A DNA stretch of 64,000 nt from Yersinia ruckeri ATCC 29473 (GTDB lineage: Bacteria; Pseudomonadota; Gammaproteobacteria; Enterobacterales; Enterobacteriaceae): positions 2,263,908 through 2,327,907 of the forward strand of contig NZ_KN150747.1 of assembly GCF_000754815.1 (NCBI RefSeq), read 5' to 3'. A program made the position numbers and the translations under genes. This document shows, piece after piece, positions 21,530-63,991 of this stretch. The notes beneath the pieces were generated by a model, which was not told the origin of the DNA, did not search any database, and saw only the letters and a list, made by a program, of their open reading frames with translations. Every line of letters starts with the position of its first letter. The stretch's first letter is position 1.

Positions 21530-21868
21530 ATGAAAAAACATATTGTTGTGTTGTTTTGTAGTTGTATGGCATTGGGCATGGGTATCGCCCATGCAGAAGA
21601 TGCCATGAGTAGTGCTCCGGTTAAAGATATGAGCATGAAGCAGGATGAAATGCATAAAAAGGAAATGATGAAAAAGGATGATATGCACAAACAGGAAATG
21701 ATGAAAAAGGACGAAATGCATAAAAATGACATGATGACAAAAGATGGTGTGCATAAAAAAGAAATGATGAAGAAGGACGAAATGCACAAAAAAGAGATGA
21801 TGAATAAAGACAGTATGAAAAAGCCAGTTCCCGAAGGGGAAATGAAGAAAGCCACAACGTCGTATTGA
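21530..21868 (+). CDS. Periplasmic MxKDx-repeat protein
   Basis: A 112-residue protein with a clear signal peptide (residues 1-22, ending AHA/ED). The mature part is almost wholly five copies of an 11-residue unit of the type MHKKEMMKKDE, rich in Met, Lys, His and acidic residues, then a short tail. This is the composition of the 'pentapeptide MXKDX repeat' family, for which no firm function is known. Met/His-rich periplasmic repeats often bind copper or silver; here that is a guess. The start has AAGGA upstream. The 33-base DNA repeats come from the protein repeats and are not a CRISPR. Confidence 0.85.
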   Translation: MKKHIVVLFCSCMALGMGIAHAEDAMSSAPVKDMSMKQDEMHKKEMMKKDDMHKQEMMKKDEMHKNDMMTKDGVHKKEMMKKDEMHKKEMMNKDSMKKPVPEGEMKKATTSY

Positions 21869-51577: not shown

Positions 51578-53905
51578 CTACTTTATTTCACTGAAGGTTG
51601 TATGGTGTGCGGCATCCGGCGCGGCGGTTTGACGGCGAGCGCAGGCGATGAGTGCCTGACCGAGTGCAAGCCCACCGTCGCCTGCAGGGATGTTGTGTGG
51701 CATGAGGACATGAAGAGGAGCCAAGTGATGGTGCAAACGTTGACGAAGTAACCGGTTATGTAATACGCCACCCGCCAATGCGACGGTGTGAATACCGGTT
51801 CGGGCACTGTGATAATGCGCGAGGGCGGCAAACCCCTGCGCCAATGCATCATGAAAAGCGAAAGCACGTGCCGCAGGCGCGGCTGACCAGTCCAGCCATT
51901 GCTGCCAGAAGGTGGCTAAATCCAAAAAAGTGCCATTCGCGCAATGCGTCAGAGGGATCGAAATCGGATGTTGTACGCCATCGGCCAGATGTGCTAACGC
52001 TTCAAGGCGGCAAGCGGCTTCACCTTCCCAACTGAGTGTGTCTGGCGCGCAACCGAGCACGGTCGACACCGCGTCAAATAAGCGCCCACAAGAGGAAGCC
52101 AAGGGGGAATTGACCCCTGCCATGATGGCTTTGGATAAAGGTTGCCATGGATGGGCAAGCAGTACCTTGGCTTCAGGGCGTGCCTGCCAATTCGGCACAA
52201 AAGCCTGCCACTGGGCCAACAGATTACGCCAAGGTTCCTGTGATGCTCGATCGCCTCCGGCCAAAGCCACGGCGGGTAATCCGCCGAGATGTTCACAGTG
52301 AAGATAATTGACCTGAAAACACTCGCCGCCCCACAGTGCGCCGGGTGCTGCATAACCCAGACCATCGAGTGCCAGCCCGATGACGTGACTGCCATCCAGC
52401 GGCCACTGATGCTCCCCCAGACAGGCGGCAATATGTGCATGATGATGAAGCACATCGACATCCGTGGTTTCAGGTTGTTGTTGGCGTTGATGACTGACAT
52501 AGGCCGGATGCGCATCATGGACGATAACGCGTGGCGTGCAGTGATAAAGCTGCTGAAAATGCTCAATGGCCTGCTGCTGTTGACGGGCGATATCGCTGCG
52601 GTTAAGTGAACCAAAGTGCGCGCTGAGGATGGCCTGATTGCCTTTCACCAGGCAGAACGTGTTTTTGAGGTCGCCACCCAGCGCCAATAGTGGCGGTTGG
52701 CATGCAAAGCCAGCGGGTAACCTGAGAGCATCCGGGACGTAACCCCGCGCGCGGCGAAGGACTTCGTTGCCCTGTGGTGACCAGCGCACCAGCGAGTCAT
52801 CGACCCGCTGAACAATATCGCGGTTGTGCAGCAACCACAGGTCGGCAATATCAACGAGTTGACGCCGTGCATCGTTATTGGTGATTACTGGTGCGCAATC
52901 GGCGCTATTTCCTGATGTCATGACCAGCGGAGTTTGCATGGCCTGCATGAGCAAATGATGCAGCGGGGTAAACGGGAGCATGAGACCGACTTCATCTAGA
53001 TTCGGTGCAATCGCAGCACACAACGGCGAGGATGCGCGGTGCCGAGTCAACACAATCGGAGCCGCAGGGGATTGCAATAGGTCACGTAGGGCGAGCGACC
53101 GATGGTCATCGCTGCACTGCGCCAGCCAGTTGATGCTCGGCAGCATGACGGCCAACGGCTTGGTAGGCCGTTGCTTACGTTCGCGTAGACGCACGACGGC
53201 GGTTTGTTGCGTGGCATCGCAGGCCAGATGAAAACCACCCAGCCCTTTAATCGCCACGATTTTTCCTGATCGGAGTGCTGCAACGGCGGATTGAATAGCG
53301 TCAGCATCCTGCGTCAGAATAGTTGCATTTTGACGTGAAGCGCTGATCTGCGGTCCGCATTGTGGGCAGGCTACAGGCTGCGCATGAAAGCGTCGATCAG
53401 CCGGATTTTGATATTCCTGCTGACATGCAGGACACAGCGTAAATGCTGCCATGCTAGTCGCTGCGCGGTCATAGGGCATCGAGTGAATAATCGTAAAGCG
53501 TGGACCACAATGTGTGCAGTTGGTAAAAGCGTAGCCAAAACGACGATCATCAGGTTGAGTGATATCTTTCAGGCATGCAGGGCAAGTGGCGGCATCGGGT
53601 GTTACCTGCGTCTCCATCTGGCTCTGCTGACTCGTGGTAATGGTAAAATCTTGCGGTGGAGTGAGCCAGTCAAAAGATTCAAATAGGATTTGGTCAATAC
53701 GCGCCAATGGTGGGCATTCGCGTTGTAATTCTTCGATAAAAAGATCAATGTTGACCGACTGAACCAGTCTGATGTCTACGCCTGAACCGTCGTTACACAC
53801 TTCTCCGCTAAGCCGTAGCTTATTAGCCAGTTGCCAGATAAAGGGTCGAAAACCCACCGCTTGAACCTTGCCGCGGATGCGAATGTGTAGAGCGGAATCA
53901 GACAT
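51578..53905 (-). CDS. hypF: Carbamoyltransferase HypF
   Basis: Makes the thiocarbamate on HypE from carbamoyl phosphate and ATP, the source of the cyanide ligands of [NiFe] hydrogenases. It has 775 residues with an acylphosphatase domain ([15 protein letters not shown], 8-22), two CxxC...CxxC zinc fingers (CPACLKD...CTHCGP and CPACQQE...CPQCGP, about 109-185), a YrdC domain (about 205-385) and a Kae1-like domain with [13 protein letters not shown]. It is slightly longer than in E. coli (750). In E. coli it also follows hydN; here fdhF and an ERIC element lie between them. Confidence 0.95.
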
Positions 53906-54069: not shown

Positions 54070-56241
54070 CTAAATCTCAACCACTGGAATCACATCTTCA
54101 ACGGCACTGCGCAGACGGGCTTTCATGTCGCTATAACTTTGCTGGGCGAAGTTTTCGGCCCAACGCTGATCAGCGATATGCTCGACTTTGACTGCACAAT
54201 ATTTGGTTTCCGGCGTTTTGGAGATCGGATCCAAATTTTCCTGCGTCAGTTCGTTACACGCACCAATCCACCATTGATAAGTCATGTACACCGCGCCGAG
54301 ATTGATGCGCTCGTTGTAATTGGCGCGTGAAATGACTTTACCGCGGCGTGAGGAGACCCAGACCAACTGCTGATCGCGAATACCCAGCACCTGCGCATCC
54401 TGTGGGTGCATCTGCACAAAGCCTGGTTCGTCGGCCAGTGTTTGCAAGGCGGCACAGTTACCGGTCATTGAGCGGCAGGAATAGTGACCGACTTCGCGCA
54501 CGGTACAGAGCACCAACGGGTAATCGGCGTCCGGCACTTCGGCTGGCGCGCGCCACGGCGCAGCAAAAAGCTGGCCTTTACCCGATGGAGTATCGAAGTG
54601 ATTGTCCTGATACAAAAATGGCGTTCCAGGGCTGTCTAGCGTGGTGCAAGGCCACTGAATATGCCCCAGCGTACCCATTTTCTCGTAGGTTGCACCGTAG
54701 AACAGTGGACATAGTTCACGCATTTCATCCCAAATTTCCTGGTTGTCGTTATAGTGCATCGGATAACCCAGCTCACTGGATAGTAGGCTAATAATTTCCC
54801 AGTCACGTTTGATGTTGTATTTCGGCTCAATCGCTTTCTCAAAACGTTGGAAACCGCGATCGGCACAGGAGAACACGCCTCCGTGTTCACCCCAAGAGGT
54901 GGCGGGTAGAATGACGTCGGCCTGCTCTGCCGTTTTGGTCATGAAAATGTCCTGAACTATCACCAACTCCAATGCTTCAAAGCCCTTACGTACCAGACTT
55001 AAATCGGCTTCGGTCTGCAACGGATCTTCCCCCATGATGTAGTAGGCTTTAACGTGGCCTTCCAACGCCAGATGCGGGATTTCGGTAATACGATGGCCGA
55101 CTTCGGTATCCATTTGATTAACATCAATGCCCCATGCGTCGGCAAATTTCGCTCGAACTAGAGGGTCGGTAACCGACTGATAGCCAGGGAACTCATTCGG
55201 CAAGACGCCCATATCACAGGCACCCTGCACGTTATTTTGCCCCCGCACCGGACCGACGCCAACGTTGGCTCGCCCGATATTACCGGTCAGCAATGCCAAC
55301 CCAGCCAGACCTTTCACCACGTCCACCGCCTGACCAAACTGGGTAACACCCATGCCCCACATGATGGTGGCAGAAGGCGCGGCAGCGTAAGTTCGCATCG
55401 CTTGACGAATTTGTTGTGCCGAAACACCCGTCTGTTCCGCGACGGCTTCAGGTGAATAGTCGGCTACGTTTTTGCGGTACTCATCGAAGCCTTCGGTGTA
55501 TTTGGCGACATAGTCGTAGTCATACAGATTTTCTTCGATCAGCACATACGCGAAAGCATTGACCAATGCCATATTGCAGCCGTTGGTGATTTGCAAATGC
55601 TGGTCGGCGATGCGGGCGGTTTCGATACGGCGTGGGTCACAGACAATAATCTGTGCGCCTTTTTCTTTGGCTTTGATCACGCGACGGGCAACGATCGGGT
55701 GGGAATCGGCGCAGTTATAGCCGATCACCAACAAGCATTTGGAGTTTTCAATATCGCCGATGGAGTTACTCATCGCGCCGTTGCCGAGCGTGGCTTGCAG
55801 GCCGGCAACTGACGGGCCGTGACACACACGGGCACAACAATCAACATTGTTCGTACCGATCACCGCCCGGGCAAATTTCTGCATCACATAGTTGGTTTCA
55901 TTGCCAGTACCACGGGACGAACCGGTATGCATAATCGAACGTGGGCCATATTTTTGTTTGATTTCTTTTAGGCGTTGCGCCGTATAACGGATGGCTTCAT
56001 CCCAACTGACCGCTTCAAATTTACCGCCTTTATGACGGCGAATCAGTGGTTGCGTCAGGCGCGGTGTGAGCAGTTTGGTATCATTAAGGAAATCCCAGCC
56101 GTAATAGCCCTTCAGACAGAGCTCCCCTTGATTGGTGACACCTTCAGCCGCTTCTGCACGAACGATTTTGCCGTTATCCACAACCAGATTCATTTTGCAT
56201 CCGGCCCCGCAGTAAGGGCAGACAGTGGTGATTTTTTTCAT
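54070..56241 (-). CDS. fdhF: Formate dehydrogenase H, cysteine form
   Basis: The molybdopterin enzyme of formate hydrogenlyase, oxidising formate to CO2. It has 723 residues (E. coli 715) and aligns throughout. The [4Fe-4S] ligands are C8, C11, C15 and C42, with K44 as the electron-relay lysine. At the active site the sequence is DCCARVCHGPSV: residue 140 is Cys, codon TGT at 55822-55824, where E. coli has selenocysteine encoded by UGA. H141 and the distal R are kept. The enzyme is thus made without the selenium machinery, usually at a lower turnover. It starts 23 bases after hydN. Confidence 0.95.
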   Translation of the reverse strand: MKKITTVCPYCGAGCKMNLVVDNGKIVRAEAAEGVTNQGELCLKGYYGWDFLNDTKLLTPRLTQPLIRRHKGGKFEAVSWDEAIRYTAQRLKEIKQKYGPRSIMHTGSSRGTGNETNYVMQKFARAVIGTNNVDCCARVCHGPSVAGLQATLGNGAMSNSIGDIENSKCLLVIGYNCADSHPIVARRVIKAKEKGAQIIVCDPRRIETARIADQHLQITNGCNMALVNAFAYVLIEENLYDYDYVAKYTEGFDEYRKNVADYSPEAVAEQTGVSAQQIRQAMRTYAAAPSATIMWGMGVTQFGQAVDVVKGLAGLALLTGNIGRANVGVGPVRGQNNVQGACDMGVLPNEFPGYQSVTDPLVRAKFADAWGIDVNQMDTEVGHRITEIPHLALEGHVKAYYIMGEDPLQTEADLSLVRKGFEALELVIVQDIFMTKTAEQADVILPATSWGEHGGVFSCADRGFQRFEKAIEPKYNIKRDWEIISLLSSELGYPMHYNDNQEIWDEMRELCPLFYGATYEKMGTLGHIQWPCTTLDSPGTPFLYQDNHFDTPSGKGQLFAAPWRAPAEVPDADYPLVLCTVREVGHYSCRSMTGNCAALQTLADEPGFVQMHPQDAQVLGIRDQQLVWVSSRRGKVISRANYNERINLGAVYMTYQWWIGACNELTQENLDPISKTPETKYCAVKVEHIADQRWAENFAQQSYSDMKARLRSAVEDVIPVVEI

Positions 56242-56264: not shown

Positions 56265-56810
56265 TTAAAACAGCAACGGTGAAGTGCTGTCGAGCGCAGC
56301 GCGGCGGCGTTTTTCTGCGTTCATTTCTTGTAATTGATTACGATCGATGGCGAACAGCGCATTGGTCGGACAGATGTCGATACAGGCTGGACCTTCAGCA
56401 TGGGCATGGCACAGGTCACATTTGTGTGCTTCGGCTTTATCGGATGTTGCGCTTATTGCCGCACCGTTTTGGCGGAATATCGGTTTGGTAACCACCTCCA
56501 TTGCGCCGTAGGGGCAGGCGACCACGCAGGTTTTACAGCCGATGCAACGTTCTTGCATCACCTGAATGTGGTCGTCGATACGGGCAATGGCTCCATTTGG
56601 GCACACATTGGCGCAAGGAGCGTCTTCACACTGGCGACACATGACGGCGGTGCTGAGATTGACACCTTTGATCACGTGTAAGCGCGGGGCAAAGGTGCTG
56701 GCATTAAGTAGTGAGATATCCTGTGAATCGCTATGTGCCATCACACAGGCAATTTCACAGGTACGACAGCCGATGCATTTTTTGGGATCGGCAATAATGA
56801 AACGGTTCAT
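56265..56810 (-). CDS. hydN: Electron-transfer ferredoxin HydN
   Basis: A 181-residue protein with four [4Fe-4S] clusters in the pattern of HydN/HycB/DmsB: CIGCRTCEIAC, CRQCEDAPCANVC, CIGCKTCVVAC and CDLCHAHAEGPACIDIC. It carries electrons from FdhF and is needed for full formate dehydrogenase H activity. It is followed by fdhF, unlike in E. coli where it is followed by hypF. Confidence 0.93.
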   Translation of the reverse strand: MNRFIIADPKKCIGCRTCEIACVMAHSDSQDISLLNASTFAPRLHVIKGVNLSTAVMCRQCEDAPCANVCPNGAIARIDDHIQVMQERCIGCKTCVVACPYGAMEVVTKPIFRQNGAAISATSDKAEAHKCDLCHAHAEGPACIDICPTNALFAIDRNQLQEMNAEKRRRAALDSTSPLLF

Positions 56811-56992: not shown

Positions 56993-57478
56993 TCAGCCGC
57001 TTTCAGCCTGAAAAAGGGCGATACCCAGACCGATTTCCAGATCCGGTAACCGCTGGTGGATACAGCAGACTGCCTGCTCAACGACGGCACTCATCGGGTA
57101 GTAAAACGCCACAACGTCAGGCTGGATGCCGACAAAGGTGATCTGTGGGATATCTTCACGCAACTGTTGCATCAGATAGGTTAGTGGCAAGTTGTGCGTG
57201 GTCATCATGAACATTTCGCCAATGTCCTTTTCGTCGATAATACGCATCTCTCCGGGAGCCAACCCCATGTCGGTGGCATCGACAATCACCAAGTGTTGCG
57301 GCTGTAACTCACGTAAAAAACCGATGTCATTTTCCGGTGCCGCACCGCCATCAACCACCGTCCAACCAGCGAGTGGTTGTTCAGCACATAATTCGGCCAA
57401 TCGAGGGCCAGCACCGTCATCACCCATCATGCTGTTACCGACACATAATAGGGCGTAGCGCGAGGTAAAATCAGGCAT
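56993..57478 (-). CDS. hycI: Hydrogenase 3 maturation endopeptidase HycI
   Basis: Cleaves the C-terminal tail of pre-HycE after nickel insertion. It has 161 residues. The M52 protease fold has GNSMMGDDGAG (14-24, with the nickel-binding Asp), VDATDMG near 66 and MTTHNLPL near 92 (His ligand). It overlaps hycH by 8 bases. Confidence 0.94.
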   Translation of the reverse strand: MPDFTSRYALLCVGNSMMGDDGAGPRLAELCAEQPLAGWTVVDGGAAPENDIGFLRELQPQHLVIVDATDMGLAPGEMRIIDEKDIGEMFMMTTHNLPLTYLMQQLREDIPQITFVGIQPDVVAFYYPMSAVVEQAVCCIHQRLPDLEIGLGIALFQAESG

Positions 57479-57953
57479 CGTATCTCCGAACCATCAGGTA
57501 CATAGCAGGATCGTTTTCAATCTGTTGTAACAGCGTAATCAGCTGTTCGCTCCAGCCTTGTTGTTGCACGTTCATCTGTGGAAGGGCATCGCGCAACGCC
57601 AATGCCAGACAATGTGTGTGGCTGCTATCGATAGTGATTTCGCCAAAACGCTGTACGCCGGTGAGCTTGCGTTGCGCTTCACCATGTTCCGGCAGGAGAT
57701 TAATCCATAATCCATAAGCGTCGAGAGGACATTCGAGGCGCGATTTAAGGCAGTCAATCACACCGAGATGATGGCCAATCGCCAGGCTGTAATAAACCAC
57801 TTCCTGTACCTTGGGCGAACTGCGCTTTTGTGCATTTTTCTCATCAATAAATTTGCCGCTTAAGGAATAGAACACCACCTTATTTTTGGGCGGTTGCCAG
57901 CCAGGACAGGGTTGATGCTGTGCGTAGCGTTGGTCATTTCCTAACGTCTTCAC
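57471..57953 (-). CDS. hycH: Formate hydrogenlyase maturation protein HycH
   Basis: Assembly protein acting on the large-subunit precursor of hydrogenase 3. The conserved part ([38 protein letters not shown]) matches E. coli HycH. With the GTG at 57953, coupled to the hycG stop, it has 160 residues, about 24 more at the N-terminus than E. coli HycH (136). No better start is seen close to the conserved region, so the extension may be real. Confidence 0.9.
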
Positions 57954-58747
57954 AGGCGAACCTCGCCGCTCAGAACCTGCTGATAAATGTGTTGCAGATT
58001 GCCAATAATTTCATTGAGCCGCCTATCGCCTTGTTGGGCGAGATAGTCTGATATGCGTTGTTCAATGGGCTGTAAACCGGGTTCGGCGATCATGTTCATA
58101 AACTGATCGGCAATCTGGCGACCATAGCGATAACCCGCCATGCGACGTGCTTCACGATCGAGTAACACCCGCAGCGGCTGCGGTAAGTCGGGATGCAATA
58201 AGGTGGCGGGTTCGGCGGCGGTCTCGTTGTGTTGCTGGCCGTTGATTTTTTGATCGAGCAAACCGAGTGCCATGGCGAAGCCATAAATAGTGGCGGCTGG
58301 CGTTGGCGGACAACCTGGAATATAAACGTCAACCGGCACGATTTTGTCCGTGCCACCCCAAACGCAGTACAGGTCATGGAAGATCCCACCGCTGTTGCCA
58401 CATGCACCATAAGAAATAGATATTTTGGGATCGGGTGCGGAATCCCATGCCCGCAGCGCCGGTATGCGCATCGCGCGGGTGACGGCACCGGTAAACAGCA
58501 GAATATCGGCATGGCGTGGCGAGGGGACGACTTTGATCCCGAAGCGTTCAGCATCGAACAGCGGAGAAATTGCGGCGAAAATCTCGATTTCACAGCCGTT
58601 ACAGCCGCCGCAGTCTACGCGGTAAACATAGGCGGAGCGACGAATGCTGGTCAGCAACGTGGATTTTAGTTTGGCAATACTTTCGTCAATAGTGACGGGA
58701 ACCGGCAGGCCATTTTCGTCACGAGGCCCAATTAGCGTCTGGCTCAT
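57950..58747 (-). CDS. hycG: Hydrogenase 3 small subunit HycG
   Basis: NuoB-like small subunit with one [4Fe-4S] cluster next to the [NiFe] site: [20 protein letters not shown] and IPGCPPTPA hold the ligands. It has 265 residues from ATG 58747, which overlaps the hycF stop. The C-terminal extension of about 80 residues beyond NuoB is the usual one for HycG. Confidence 0.95.
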
Positions 58748-59301
58748 CAATAGGCCTCCGTGGTCATATGTCGACCGAGATCAATGCGGTCACTGGAAGA
58801 AAGGCTGTGCCTACTTTTGCATGTCGGACAGGTTTCGTACTGCACGCGACGATCGGCCATTTGTTGATCACTCAACGCGGCACTGTCCTGTAATAGGCTC
58901 AGTGCGAAGTCGATTTCTTTTTGCACGGCATAGGGTTTGCCGCATTCACGGCAGGCACAAACCGGAAAATCGGCCGTTTCGAACAAGTCTTCTTTGCGCC
59001 ATACTGCCAGCTCAAATTCCTGCGACAGGTGTATTGCTGCGGTTGGGCATACTTCCTCGCAGCGGGCACAGAAAATGCAGCGCCCTAAAAACAGCGACCA
59101 ACGGAGACTTTCGCCATCTTCGGCTGGAGTCATGGTCAGCGCGTTGGAAGGGCAGGCATTAGCGCAAGCTCCACAGCCGATACATTGCTGTGCGTTATAT
59201 TCAGGTTTCCCGCGAAAGTTTGCTGCCAGATCCAGCGCTTTGAACGGATAGGCCACGGTTACCGTGCCAGTTTTTAGCACTTTTTTAATCAGCTTTATCA
59301 T
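58747..59301 (-). CDS. hycF: Hydrogenase 3 ferredoxin-like subunit HycF
   Basis: A 184-residue NuoI-like protein with two [4Fe-4S] motifs, [16 protein letters not shown] and [16 protein letters not shown], plus C-terminal CxC and CPTC motifs (CACRECG, CPTC) that may bind zinc or a further cluster. It links HycB to HycG in electron transfer. Confidence 0.94.
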
Positions 59302-59314
59302 GATGAAGCGTTCC

Positions 59315-61039
59315 TTAAAGTGGCGAATTCTTGCGTTCTATGCCGTAACGCTCGATCTCTTTGTAAGGCACGACAATCGTTGTTTTCTTACGCACGTCGA
59401 CGACGGTCATACGGTCGGTGCAGGAATAACAAGGGTCGAGGCTACCGATGATCAAGGGGGCATCGGACACCGTATTGCCACGCAACATGTAGCGCAGGGT
59501 TGGCCAATTGGCGTAGGTCGCGGCTCGACAGCGCCAGCGGAACAACTTCTGATTGTCGCCGGTCATGCTCCAGTGAATGTCGTCGCCGCGTGGTGCTTCG
59601 GCAAAACCAAGGGCGAAGCGGTGGGGGATATAAGTAAAACCTTCTACCATTAGCGGTCCACTCGGCAGGCTTTGCAGGCCGAACTCGATCATATTCAGCG
59701 CGTTAAAGACTTCATGAATGCGGACTTTCAGGCGCGAATAAACGTCGTTACCGGTTTCGCTATACAACTCAAACGGTAGTTTGGCGTAACCAGCGTAAGG
59801 GTGATCGTGGCGCATATCGCGGCGATGGCCGCTGCCGCGCACCATCGGACCTACATTGCTGAAATCGCGAGCCACTTGAGGGTCCAAAATGCCGACGCCG
59901 ACGCTGCGTTGCTCGGTATTCGCCGTACTCAGTAAAATATCGACCAACTGATTAAAGTCGCGGCGCATGCTGCCAGCTAATGCGATGGTCTGGATCATGT
60001 CATCTTTTAAGATATCGCGACGCATGCCACCAATCAGATTCATGCCGTAGGTTTTACGTGCGCCGGTCAGGATTTCCGCCATCTTCATTGACTGTTCACG
60101 AATGCGGAAAAACTGCATAAAACCGGAATCAAAACCAACAAAGTGGCAGGCCAACCCCAAGTTGAGCAAATGACTGTGTAGACGTTCGACTTCTAGCAGA
60201 ATGGAGCGAATCATCTGCGCCCGTTCTGGCACCACGATGCCCATCGCATTTTCCACTGACGAGGTGTATGCCACGCTGTGCGTAAAGCCGCAGATGCCGC
60301 AAACACGATCGGACAGGAACGTCACTTCGTTGTACCCCATCCGGGTTTCGGCCAGTTTTTCCATACCGCGATGAACGTAAAACAGGCGGTAATCGGCGTC
60401 GATAATGTCTTCACCGTCGACAAACAGTCGAAAGTGTCCCGGTTCATCAGAGGTAACGTGTAGCGGGCCAATCGGCACAATTTTGCTGCCTGCTTTGGCC
60501 TCGGAAATAAACGGATAGGTTTCTTCGTCGGTGGTTGGCGCGGGGCGCTGGCGATAATCCATCGAATCTTTACGCAACGGATAGAGATCGTCAGGCCAGT
60601 CATCTGGCAGTACCAGCCGGCGTTCGTCTGGCAAACCCACGGGACGTAATCCGTACATGTCGCGGACTTCGCGTTCGCCCCAGACAGCCGCCGGAACCCG
60701 CGGCGTGACCGACGGAAATTCCAGCGAAACCGGGTCCACTTCAGCGCGCACGGTTATCCAGCACTTCACACCTTGCTCCATCGACATCACGTAATACAGC
60801 GCGTAGTTGCCGCATAGCGTGCGTTCGTCATTGCCAAATAGTACCGACAACCAGCCGCCCTGCTGGTAATACAGCCACTCAACCACGTCGGGTAGGGCGT
60901 TCAGTTTGATGGTCACCGTTACCTGCGTATCGGTCTGCCATTCACTGCCCTGTACCGCTGATGGAAACTGTTTGGCCAGCGCTGCCAGATAATGATGACC
61001 AACAGGGTGCTGATTTAATGCGGTATTGAATTCACTCAT
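59315..61039 (-). CDS. hycE: Hydrogenase 3 large subunit HycE
   Basis: The [NiFe] catalytic subunit producing H2, 574 residues (E. coli 569). The N-terminal 170 residues are a NuoC-like domain and the rest NuoD-like. Both active-site motifs are intact: RVCGICGFTHS (L1) and DPCYSCTDR (L2). The tail after CTDR starts MTVVDVRKK and ends ERKNSPL, the piece removed by HycI between Arg and Met. All catalytic residues I can check are present. Confidence 0.96.
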   Translation of the reverse strand: MSEFNTALNQHPVGHHYLAALAKQFPSAVQGSEWQTDTQVTVTIKLNALPDVVEWLYYQQGGWLSVLFGNDERTLCGNYALYYVMSMEQGVKCWITVRAEVDPVSLEFPSVTPRVPAAVWGEREVRDMYGLRPVGLPDERRLVLPDDWPDDLYPLRKDSMDYRQRPAPTTDEETYPFISEAKAGSKIVPIGPLHVTSDEPGHFRLFVDGEDIIDADYRLFYVHRGMEKLAETRMGYNEVTFLSDRVCGICGFTHSVAYTSSVENAMGIVVPERAQMIRSILLEVERLHSHLLNLGLACHFVGFDSGFMQFFRIREQSMKMAEILTGARKTYGMNLIGGMRRDILKDDMIQTIALAGSMRRDFNQLVDILLSTANTEQRSVGVGILDPQVARDFSNVGPMVRGSGHRRDMRHDHPYAGYAKLPFELYSETGNDVYSRLKVRIHEVFNALNMIEFGLQSLPSGPLMVEGFTYIPHRFALGFAEAPRGDDIHWSMTGDNQKLFRWRCRAATYANWPTLRYMLRGNTVSDAPLIIGSLDPCYSCTDRMTVVDVRKKTTIVVPYKEIERYGIERKNSPL

Positions 61040-61082: not shown

Positions 61083-62036
61083 TCAGCCTGCGACCAGCCA
61101 GGATACCAGTGCCAGAAACGCTAGCCCGAACCCCGCCCACGTGGTACGGGACGTTTTGAGAAAGCGCAGACGGGCAACGCTGTTTTCGATCAGCGATACC
61201 AAAAAAATGGCGATCAGCAGTTTCAACAAACACAGCACCACGGCGACAAGCAGCGATAGCGGCGTGATGTGCTCTGCCAGCCCGAAAGGGAAAAACAGGC
61301 CAAGAAAAAGTTGCAACACCACCCATTGCTTTAGACTTATGCCGATTTTCAGCACGCCCAACGCCGCACCGGAATATTCCGTCAGCGGACCTTCCTGCAA
61401 TTCCTGTTCAGCTTCCGCCATATCAAACGGCAATTTGCCCATCTCGATGTAGGTCGCAAAGGCACAGGCCAGACCCGCTAGAATCAATGTCAGGGACGAT
61501 GATTGTGGCCAATACCGCACGCAACTGGCGATGGCGCTGAGTGAGGTCGAACCCGCGACCAGCGCCGCGATCCAAAGCCCCAGCAACAAAATAGGCTCAA
61601 CCAAAATACCGAGCACTGCTTCACGGCTGGCACCGATGCCAGTGAACGTGCTGCCGGTATCCAGCCCCGCGATGGCAAAAACAAAACGCACCACGGCGAA
61701 CAGATAAATAACGGTGATGACATCCCCCGCGGCGCCGATCGGTGATGCCAGTGTTACCATCGGTAGGGCGGTGGCAATCACCAGTAATCCGCCAGTTAGC
61801 AAGTACGGCATACTGCGAAATGCCACACCGGATGCCATGGGTGCTACGCTTTGTCTTTTCAGTAACTTGGCGATATCACGGTATTCCTGTAAGACGCCTG
61901 GCCCTTGTCGGTTGTGCATTCGGGCACGCATCACGCGACTCAATCCAGTAAACAGCGGTGCCACGGCCAGCAGCGCAATAGCTTGAATCAGCGCCAGTGG
62001 CCACAGCGAACCAGCCAGTAAGAAGGGAAGATTCAT
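61083..62036 (-). CDS. hycD: Hydrogenase 3 membrane subunit HycD
   Basis: A NuoH-like inner-membrane subunit with 317 residues from ATG 62036 (AAGGA seven bases before). It has about eight membrane helices and the conserved RARxHNRxGPGVLQEYRD, ASREA and FIEMGKLPFD-type motif (here YIEMGKLPFDMAEAEQELQEGPLTEYSG). It anchors the hydrophilic arm to HycC. It starts 10 bases after the end of hycC. Confidence 0.94.
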   Translation of the reverse strand: MNLPFLLAGSLWPLALIQAIALLAVAPLFTGLSRVMRARMHNRQGPGVLQEYRDIAKLLKRQSVAPMASGVAFRSMPYLLTGGLLVIATALPMVTLASPIGAAGDVITVIYLFAVVRFVFAIAGLDTGSTFTGIGASREAVLGILVEPILLLGLWIAALVAGSTSLSAIASCVRYWPQSSSLTLILAGLACAFATYIEMGKLPFDMAEAEQELQEGPLTEYSGAALGVLKIGISLKQWVVLQLFLGLFFPFGLAEHITPLSLLVAVVLCLLKLLIAIFLVSLIENSVARLRFLKTSRTTWAGFGLAFLALVSWLVAG

Positions 62037-62046
62037 AGTCATTTCC

Positions 62047-63991
62047 TTAGGCAAAAGCCACGACCAGCAACACGGCCAGTTCGATAAAAGCCAGTCGACG
62101 GCAGCATGCGCCCAGCCATCCCTGATGTAGCGTAGAAACCAGAGCAACAGGCGTCACTTGACGGCGCAGGCGGTACAGTGGTGCAAACATCACGCGCAGC
62201 GGCTGAGTGAAACCCGTGGCGGTGACCACCATGTCAGCAGAATGTCCGTAGCCACAGGCCCAGGCATCCCCCCGTTGACGGTTTGCCAGACGGGTTCCGC
62301 GCAAGAGATGGGCGATAATCCAAGGTAAGAGCGGCATCGCCAGCAACAACAGCGCCAGCATCGGCGCAGAGACGGCTGAAGATGAGGAAAACACCACACC
62401 GTGCTGCGTGCTTTGCAATAATGGCGACTGTAGAACAGCGGTGGCAATCAGTGAAAACTGCGGGATAATCCACGGGGAAGCGACACCAAAAATTACGCAC
62501 AGCGCGGCAAGCATGATGCTGCTCAGCGTCATGACGAGAGGTGCTGGCGTGGCATCTGACGCTGCCTGACTGCGTGGCATCTGACGCTGCCTGACTGCGT
62601 GGTGTACCGAGGAAGGTGACGCCGAAGACTTTGGCAATACACATCAATGCCAGCGCACCGGTGAGTGCCAGACCGACCGCCAGCAGCGGCCCGAGCAGCC
62701 GAGTGATAAACATCGGACTGCTGCTGAGCTGAAACAACGATTGATACAGCAGCCATTCACTGGCGAAGCCGTTCAGCGGGGGCAGCGCTGCCATTGACAT
62801 CAGCGCAATGAGCATCGCGATAGTCGTCCATGGCATCCGGTACGCGATGCCGCCGAGTTTTTCCATATCCTTAATACCGGTTTGTAGCTCAACTTCTCCG
62901 GCTCCCAAGAAGAGCGTCGTTTTAAACAGACCGTGGTTGAACAGATGAAACAGTCCGGCCAGCAGAGCCAACGAGGCCAATTCCGGTCGCTTCAGTGCCA
63001 CCCCGACCATCGCGCCGCCAATACCCAGCAGAATAATCCCAACGTTTTCCAGCGTGTGATACGCCAATAGCCGACGGATATCGTGCTCCATCAGGGCGTA
63101 AAGCCCACCAAGAAACGCCGTCAAGATCGCCAATAGCAAAACCACCACCCCCCACCACAGCGGCGGTGCCCCGAGCAAATCCAGCCCGATTTTAATCACA
63201 CCGAGAATACCGACTTTCATCAGGGCAGAAGAGAATAAGGCAGCGGCATGAGCGGGCGCACTAGAATGTGACTGCGGCACCCAAGCGTGCAGCGGAATGA
63301 TCCCGGCATACAGCCCGAAACCGATCAGCGCCAGCAAAAAGGCGACAGATTTTACCCCGCCGGAGAACTCAGTGTGACGAAGGCTCTCAAAACTCAAACT
63401 ATCAAAACCTTGGCTACCACTGGCGTAATGCAACACCGCGAAGGCCAAAATCAGACTGATTGTGCCGAATCGGCCAGACAAAAACTGATTCAGCGCCGCC
63501 CGACGGCTTTTCTCGTCATCGGCTTGCAGGATCAGGAAATAAGCACACAGCGCGGCCAGCTCCATCATCAAGATAAGCTCAACGGCGTTAGCGGAGATGA
63601 CCGCGGCTGTCAGCGCAGCCATCAGCAGATGACACAGCAGACCAGTACGTGCGCGTTGGCACCGATGGGTATTTGCCAGCCATGCGCAGGAGTACAAACT
63701 ACAAAACAGAGATGTCACCGATATCGCCAGCAGTAACAGCGCATTCAGCCGGCTGAATTCGGCAGAAAAATGTACCAGTGGCAAGCGTATCTGTTGTGCC
63801 GTGCCAGCCAGTAATAATTGGGTTGCGGCAAGGATCCCAGCAAGGGAGGCCACTGCGCCACCGAGACCTGAAATCAGGCTGCTGACTTTGACTCTGTCAA
63901 CCAAAAGCCAGCCGACTATGCCACTCAACAACCAGAGTACTAATGCCAGTGTCAGTAATGAGGCAGGGTGCAACGCGAATAACGCTGTCAT
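62047..63991 (-). pseudogene. hycC: HycC, frameshifted by a 25-bp tandem duplication
   Basis: A NuoL/M-like membrane subunit of formate hydrogenlyase. Codons from ATG 63991 match HycC up to FLGTPRSQAASDAT near residue 467, including the helix motifs VGILG, LLAYHTLENVGIILLG and MAALPPLNGFASEW. Then the second copy of a 25-bp repeat shifts the frame, and translation runs out of frame to a stop at 62234 (585 residues). With one copy removed the frame continues as DATPAPLVMTLSS and ends in frame at 62047, giving 639 residues that match the HycC C-terminus. The last 170 residues, with several membrane helices, are lost or altered. Confidence 0.93.
62547..62602. repeat. Exact 25-bp tandem duplication within hycC
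   Basis: Copy 1 is 62547-62571 and copy 2 is 62572-62596, identical in all 25 bases (each begins GCGTGGCATCTGACGC and ends CTGCCTGACT on the plus strand), followed by GCGTGG, the first six bases again. The unit is not a multiple of three. Confidence 0.97.

What the first reader, a model, noticed from the sequence alone, without database searches (positions are those of the whole stretch)
62047..63991. Formate hydrogenlyase gene hycC knocked out by a perfect 25-bp duplication
Two identical adjacent 25-base units (62547-62596) shift the hycC frame. Deleting one unit restores a frame that matches the HycC family before and after the site (FLGTPRSQAASDAT then PAPLVMTLSS). All other hyc genes look intact, so the event is recent. 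Without a full HycC the membrane arm of hydrogenlyase should fail. Because tandem repeats of this size are lost by slippage or RecA-independent recombination, the defect may revert and act as an on/off switch for gas production.
Basis: partly seen in the sequence, partly recalled or inferred. Interest (0 to 1): 0.85.

Follow-up and report, generated by a model that had tools for sequence, protein, structure and literature searches.

The report
Gas-making gene broken by small duplication
In this fish-pathogen genome a 25-base stretch copied twice side by side throws a formate-to-hydrogen enzyme gene out of frame; it looks like a real and recent loss of function, but nothing seen here shows that it works as an on/off switch.

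Summary
Two identical adjacent 25-bp units (62547-62571, 62572-62596) plus six further matching bases lie inside hycC, the antiporter-like membrane subunit of formate hydrogenlyase (FHL). All 19 enterobacterial hycC relatives aligned lack 25 bases there. The piece before the array matches E. coli HycC 6-441 of 608, and the piece after it, in another frame, matches 454-603. The gene as it stands therefore loses the last antiporter helix and the ND3-like C-terminal part.

The genome is Yersinia ruckeri with a pYR3-like plasmid. The array looks like slippage between 6-bp direct repeats 25 bp apart. The other hyc, hyp, fdhF and fhlA genes look full length, but an IS3-family element sits between hypE and fhlA, just beyond the window. 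The literature reports the FHL cluster absent from another Y. ruckeri lineage.

A recent, ordinary loss of a dispensable pathway fits best. The proposed switch has precedents elsewhere, but no sibling chromosome, reads or one-copy/two-copy mixture could be examined, so it stays untested. An assembly artefact is not excluded.

The parts
62234..63991 (-). hycC as it stands: 585 codons to a premature stop; about the last 112 residues are out of the family frame
   Evidence: the out-of-frame piece 62237-62545 has no Pfam match at E 0.1
62606..63991 (-). piece of hycC before the array (antiporter-like part)
   Evidence: matches E. coli HycC (7z0s_C) 6-441 of 608, E 4.8e-116; PF00361
62547..62571 (-). 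25-bp unit
62572..62596 (-). 25-bp unit, identical to the other
62597..62602 (-). six further bases matching the start of the unit (third copy of hexamer GCGTGG on the + strand)
   Evidence: hexamer at 62547, 62572, 62597 and nowhere else on the + strand of 62401-62750
62050..62544 (-). piece of hycC after the array, in another frame (last antiporter helix and ND3-like part)
   Evidence: matches E. coli HycC 454-603 of 608, E 1.8e-30; no stop inside
61083..62036 (-). hycD
   Evidence: 317 of 317 residues align to 4 of 4 relatives at 87-91%
59315..61039 (-). hycE, large [NiFe] subunit
   Evidence: 574 of 574 residues align to 4 of 4 relatives at 93-96%; only PF00374 match in the genome lies inside it
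58747..59301 (-). hycF
   Evidence: NF009053 over its cut-off
57950..58750 (-). hycG (start codon not settled)
   Evidence: NF005012 over its cut-off
57471..57953 (-). hycH
   Evidence: NF011664 over its cut-off
56993..57478 (-). hycI
   Evidence: TIGR00142 over its cut-off
56265..56810 (-). hydN
   Evidence: NF007658 over its cut-off
54070..56241 (-). fdhF, formate dehydrogenase
   Evidence: TIGR01591 over its cut-off
51644..53884 (-). hypF (matched stretch)
   Evidence: TIGR00143 positions 1-740 of 741, no stops (G000:C1:2315551-2317791)

Best explanation
A loss-of-function allele of hycC in a Yersinia ruckeri strain. Slippage between two 6-bp direct repeats 25 bp apart duplicated one 25-bp stretch. 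Because 25 is not a multiple of three, the family frame is lost after about residue 473, so the last antiporter helix and the ND3-like region (ND3 loop, lateral helix, last helix) are not made. The membrane arm then cannot couple to the soluble arm, and FHL should be largely inactive. Shown: the array, the frame break, its absence from 19 relatives, and full-length or near full-length matches for the other genes. Inferred: the slippage origin, the recency, the loss of activity, and that the pathway is dispensable in this species.
For: Array and frame break. 19 of 19 aligned relatives lack 25 bases; 12 of 12 of these read to their stop give 634 residues. Pieces match consecutive parts of HycC. 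Residues 500-608 of E. coli HycC are ND3-like and carry the ND3 loop (PMC9474812 passages). E. coli hycC deletion: 7% H2 production (PMC5061711 passages). Slippage form: third matching hexamer. Dispensability: FHL cluster absent from the YRB lineage (PMC10174560 passage); one wound isolate acidified glucose without gas (PMC4184584 passage). A single NiFe hydrogenase here and in print (PMC2847712 passages).
Against: No activity data and no reads. The insertion may be an assembly error. PMC2847712 says that the small Y. ruckeri chromosome shows relatively few frameshifts and pseudogenes, so general decay is not expected. The wound isolate's genotype is unknown, and the IS element may be harmless.
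Confidence: 0.8

Rival explanations
1. Sequencing or assembly artefact: the second unit does not exist in the cells and hycC is whole.
For: No reads were available; the 25-bp units are short and identical.
Against: The chromosome is one 3.67-Mb contig. Short-repeat errors tend to collapse copies rather than add them (recalled). Perfect tandem units of 20 bp or more are few in the 503-kb sample: 2.
Confidence: 0.08
2. Reversible switch: the duplication is gained and lost often enough that populations hold gas-producing and gas-free cells.
For: Intragenic tandem duplications drive capsule phase variation in pneumococcus (titles of Waite 2001 and 2003 in the reference list of PMC4022640; those papers not seen). 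The rest of the operon looks full length.
Against: Only one allele was seen in one genome. Only two units are present, unlike the many-copy repeats of classical contingency loci (recalled). The duplication is absent from 19 of 19 relatives, and 0 of 19 have two identical bounding hexamers. The FHL cluster is wholly missing from another lineage. For insertions of up to nine bp PMC4022640 expects reversion at no more than about 1e-5; a rate for 25 bp is not known here.
Confidence: 0.06
3. Function is kept in spite of the break, by translational frameshifting or by separate translation of the C-terminal part as a split HycC.
For: The frame after the array is open upstream to 62637 with possible starts, a 196-aa ORF. 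ND3 is a separate subunit in complex I (PMC9474812 passages).
Against: The break falls before residue 454, inside the antiporter-like fold (1-485), not at its junction with the ND3-like part. No recoding signal was searched for with a dedicated tool and none is known to me in this family (recalled).
Confidence: 0.03

Closest known systems
HycC of E. coli formate hydrogenlyase-1 (PDB 7z0s/7z0t chain C)
   Same: Both pieces match it in order; the operon is of the same hyc type.
   Different: The E. coli chain is one polypeptide of 608 residues; here the frame is broken by the array.
hycC of Rahnella, Hafnia psychrotolerans, Erwinia oleae, Pantoea and relatives
   Same: Closest homologues found, 51-80% protein identity over the part before the array (19 loci).
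   Different: 19 of 19 lack the 25 bases.
Tandem-duplication inactivation in pneumococcal capsule genes (Waite and colleagues 2001, 2003; cited in PMC4022640)
   Same: Short tandem duplication inside a reading frame.
   Different: There phase variation was observed, by the cited titles; here only one allele in one genome is known, and the gene is metabolic.
Hyd-4 (hyf) clusters of other Yersinia species
   Same: A HycE homologue at 75-76% identity in 18 of the 24 other genus members searched.
   Different: In 3 of 3 loci examined an antiporter-like gene only about 29% identical to HycC lies beside it and no hycD match was found in the roughly 1.5 kb of flank held.

Membership tests
hyc-type formate hydrogenlyase (FHL-1) cluster | hycA-I with hydN, fdhF, hyp genes and fhlA nearby | tested here: met
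   hycA scores 176 bits against a cut-off of 180; hycB, hycD and hycE reached no NCBIfam cut-off in the rows shown and rest on similarity to relatives.
hyc-type formate hydrogenlyase (FHL-1) cluster | uninterrupted hycC | tested here: not met
pseudogene by tandem duplication | derived perfect duplication that breaks the family frame | tested here: met
long-decayed pseudogene | further stops, frameshifts or clearly raised divergence | tested here: not met
   No stop in either piece; pN/pS 0.19-0.29 against 4 relatives. A small excess divergence after the array (74.8% against 78.4% mean identity to 12 relatives; relatives among themselves 83.1% and 83.6%) may be noise.
phase-variable (contingency) locus | both alleles found in one population or among siblings | not testable with these tools
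   No second Y. ruckeri chromosome was found in the collections searched; no reads.
phase-variable (contingency) locus | repeat conserved at the same place in relatives | tested here: not met
   0 of 19 relatives.

The most novel reading that the evidence does not exclude
The two-unit array is one state of a slippage-driven switch of fermentative gas formation and formate disposal in Y. ruckeri, which would be a phase-variable hydrogenase membrane subunit.
Probability: 0.06. Interest if true: 0.6.

Novelty: new member of a known kind. Interest (0 to 1): 0.22.

Why it matters
It would explain absent or weak gas formation in this strain and is a clear case of a slippage-born gene loss in a fish pathogen. 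It also warns that gene presence/absence surveys can score this FHL cluster as present although one important subunit is broken. If both alleles were found in one culture it would become a rare case of metabolic phase variation.

Tried and rejected
Chance match: rejected.

Long decay: rejected on present data.

A second hydrogenase that could stand in: PF00374 gave one place in the genome, inside hycE. The HycE protein also hit a place at 28% identity, which I take to be complex I NuoCD (label recalled).

Sibling alleles: sought in plasmids, genome contigs, 25 genomes of the genus, 295 of the family and viral contigs (no hit). No second Y. ruckeri chromosome was found, so fixation or polymorphism stays open. 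The tools note that records very near the window's own genome may be left out.

Literature on this allele: none seen in the listings, nor in the passages opened. PMC4016151 lists a gas test in its methods, but the passages I saw give no result. PMC4849013 passages did not bear on it. One search found no paper; some searches gave only general precedents. PMC7384014 (a Pectobacterium FHL-2 paper) was seen only as a listing.

Not run: structure prediction, and a dedicated search for frameshift signals.

Full report
WHAT IS THERE. Window 62547-62602 holds a perfect tandem array: two full 25-bp units plus six further matching bases. It lies inside hycC on the minus strand, which starts at 63991 and, as it stands, reads 585 codons to a stop at 62234-62236. 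In 20 first-order Markov randomisations of the window the largest perfect tandem unit was 10 bp (periods 8-100).

BACKGROUND. In 503,093 bases of this genome (window, its flanks and 20 sampled stretches; periods 8-500) there are two perfect tandem units of 20 bp or more: this one and one of 41 bp. Two lie between 10 and 19 bp (16 and 13 bp), and an 8-bp unit is repeated 17 times at one place. The 41-bp array lies between ORFs, before one whose product looks like CydA (recalled). The 16-bp array overlaps only an 81-aa frame that I do not take for a gene. The 13-bp array overlaps no ORF of 80 aa or more. Among these four arrays of 10 bp or more, the hycC one is the only one that breaks a recognisable gene. 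Scaled up, about 15 perfect units of 20 bp or more may exist in the genome (inference).

WHICH ORGANISM. The chromosome contig has 3,672,847 bases and a second contig 99,962. The first 15 kb of the second contig match Y. ruckeri plasmids at 99-100% identity, among them LN681230 and CP071804, which are pYR3 of clonal complex 2 strains (PMC10174560 section 6 part 1).

IS THE EXTRA UNIT DERIVED? In the genus, 4 of 24 other genomes gave weak DNA matches (67-68%). Of 70 homologous loci the 19 enterobacterial ones were aligned, and 19 of 19 lack exactly 25 bases here. The other 51, from more distant organisms, were not aligned at the site. Twelve of the 19 were read to their stop, and all twelve give 634 residues. 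The extra unit is therefore derived on the Y. ruckeri side.

EFFECT ON THE PROTEIN. The piece before the array matches formate hydrogenlyase subunit 3 residues 6-441 of 608, and the piece after it, in another frame, matches 454-603. In E. coli, HycC has 16 TMHs. Residues 1-485 are antiporter-like, and 500-608 are ND3-like with the ND3 loop (PMC9474812 passages). By position the broken gene loses the last antiporter helix and the ND3-like part (inference). An E. coli hycC deletion keeps 7% of H2 production (standard deviation 53% of that value) and 18% of formate production (PMC5061711 passages). Strong loss of FHL is expected here, not shown.

HOW IT AROSE. The + strand hexamer GCGTGG stands at 62547, 62572 and 62597 and nowhere else in 62401-62750. 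Slippage between two such hexamers 25 bp apart would leave exactly this form. In the relatives' single-copy sequence the two corresponding hexamers are identical in 0 of 19, so the substrate may be peculiar to this lineage. The origin is inferred from form.

HOW OLD. Neither piece has a stop. pN/pS against four relatives is 0.19-0.24 before and 0.22-0.29 after the array. Mean identity to twelve relatives is 78.4% before and 74.8% after; relatives among themselves have 83.6% and 83.1%; L020 against the others has 77.6% and 78.8%. The slight excess after the array, about six residues of 165, may be noise or early relaxation. The allele is young on the scale of species divergence and cannot be dated.

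THE REST OF THE PATHWAY. hycF-I, hydN, fdhF and hypF in the window, and hypA-E and fhlA beyond it, reach family cut-offs over all or nearly all of their length. hycD and hycE align end to end with four relatives. hycA scores 176 against a cut-off of 180 and hycB reached none in the rows shown, but the DNA there aligns with relatives. Beyond the window, at L106:6063-7297, a 1,235-bp IS3-family element lies between hypE and fhlA. Five of five relatives have 101-147 bases between these genes, against 1,345 here. Seven copies of at least about 1.2 kb, this one included, are listed at 100% identity in the genome, with a partial copy on the plasmid contig and two short diverged matches. The element is therefore probably a recent arrival. 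Whether it disturbs fhlA expression is unknown.

DISPENSABILITY. The FHL cluster is absent from the YRB lineage (PMC10174560 passage). One wound isolate of Y. ruckeri made acid but no gas from glucose (PMC4184584 passage); its genotype is unknown. Against general decay, PMC2847712 reports relatively few frameshifts and pseudogenes in the species. In the part of its table that I saw, the type strain is listed with a partial set of hyf-named genes and fdhF, without mention of a break.

JUDGEMENT. A recent ordinary loss of function is best supported (0.8). An artefact (0.08) cannot be excluded without reads. The switch (0.06) has precedent in pneumococcal capsule genes, but there is no evidence for it here, and the missing cluster elsewhere speaks mildly against it. 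Retained function (0.03) is unlikely.

Noticed in passing
L106:6063-7297 (G000:C1:2333063-2334297, beyond the window's right end): An IS3-family element between hypE and fhlA; seven copies at 100% listed identity in the genome.
   Followed up: partly
window 55822-55824: fdhF has a cysteine codon (TGT) in the context VCH, where E. coli FdhF has selenocysteine (recalled); a tRNA-Sec gene is nevertheless present in the genome.
   Followed up: partly
L147:14559-14697 (G000:C1:474559-474697): A perfect 8-bp repeat (CATTACGC) in about 17 copies between two ORFs (157 aa on -, 205 aa on +); by form a likelier site of copy-number change than the hycC array.
   Followed up: no
window 21635-21810: A 33-bp repeat, about 5 imperfect copies, inside a 112-aa ORF (21530-21868, +) that encodes a Lys/Met/His-rich protein with a signal-like start.
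   Followed up: no
G000 against 24 other genomes of the genus: A HycE homologue at 75-76% is found in 18 of 24; three loci examined look hyf-like, whereas the cluster here is hyc-like and closest to Rahnella and relatives, which raises the question of separate acquisition.
   Followed up: partly
G000:C2 (99,962 bp): pYR3-like plasmid contig, about 4 kb shorter than the 103.9-kb records it matches.
   Followed up: no
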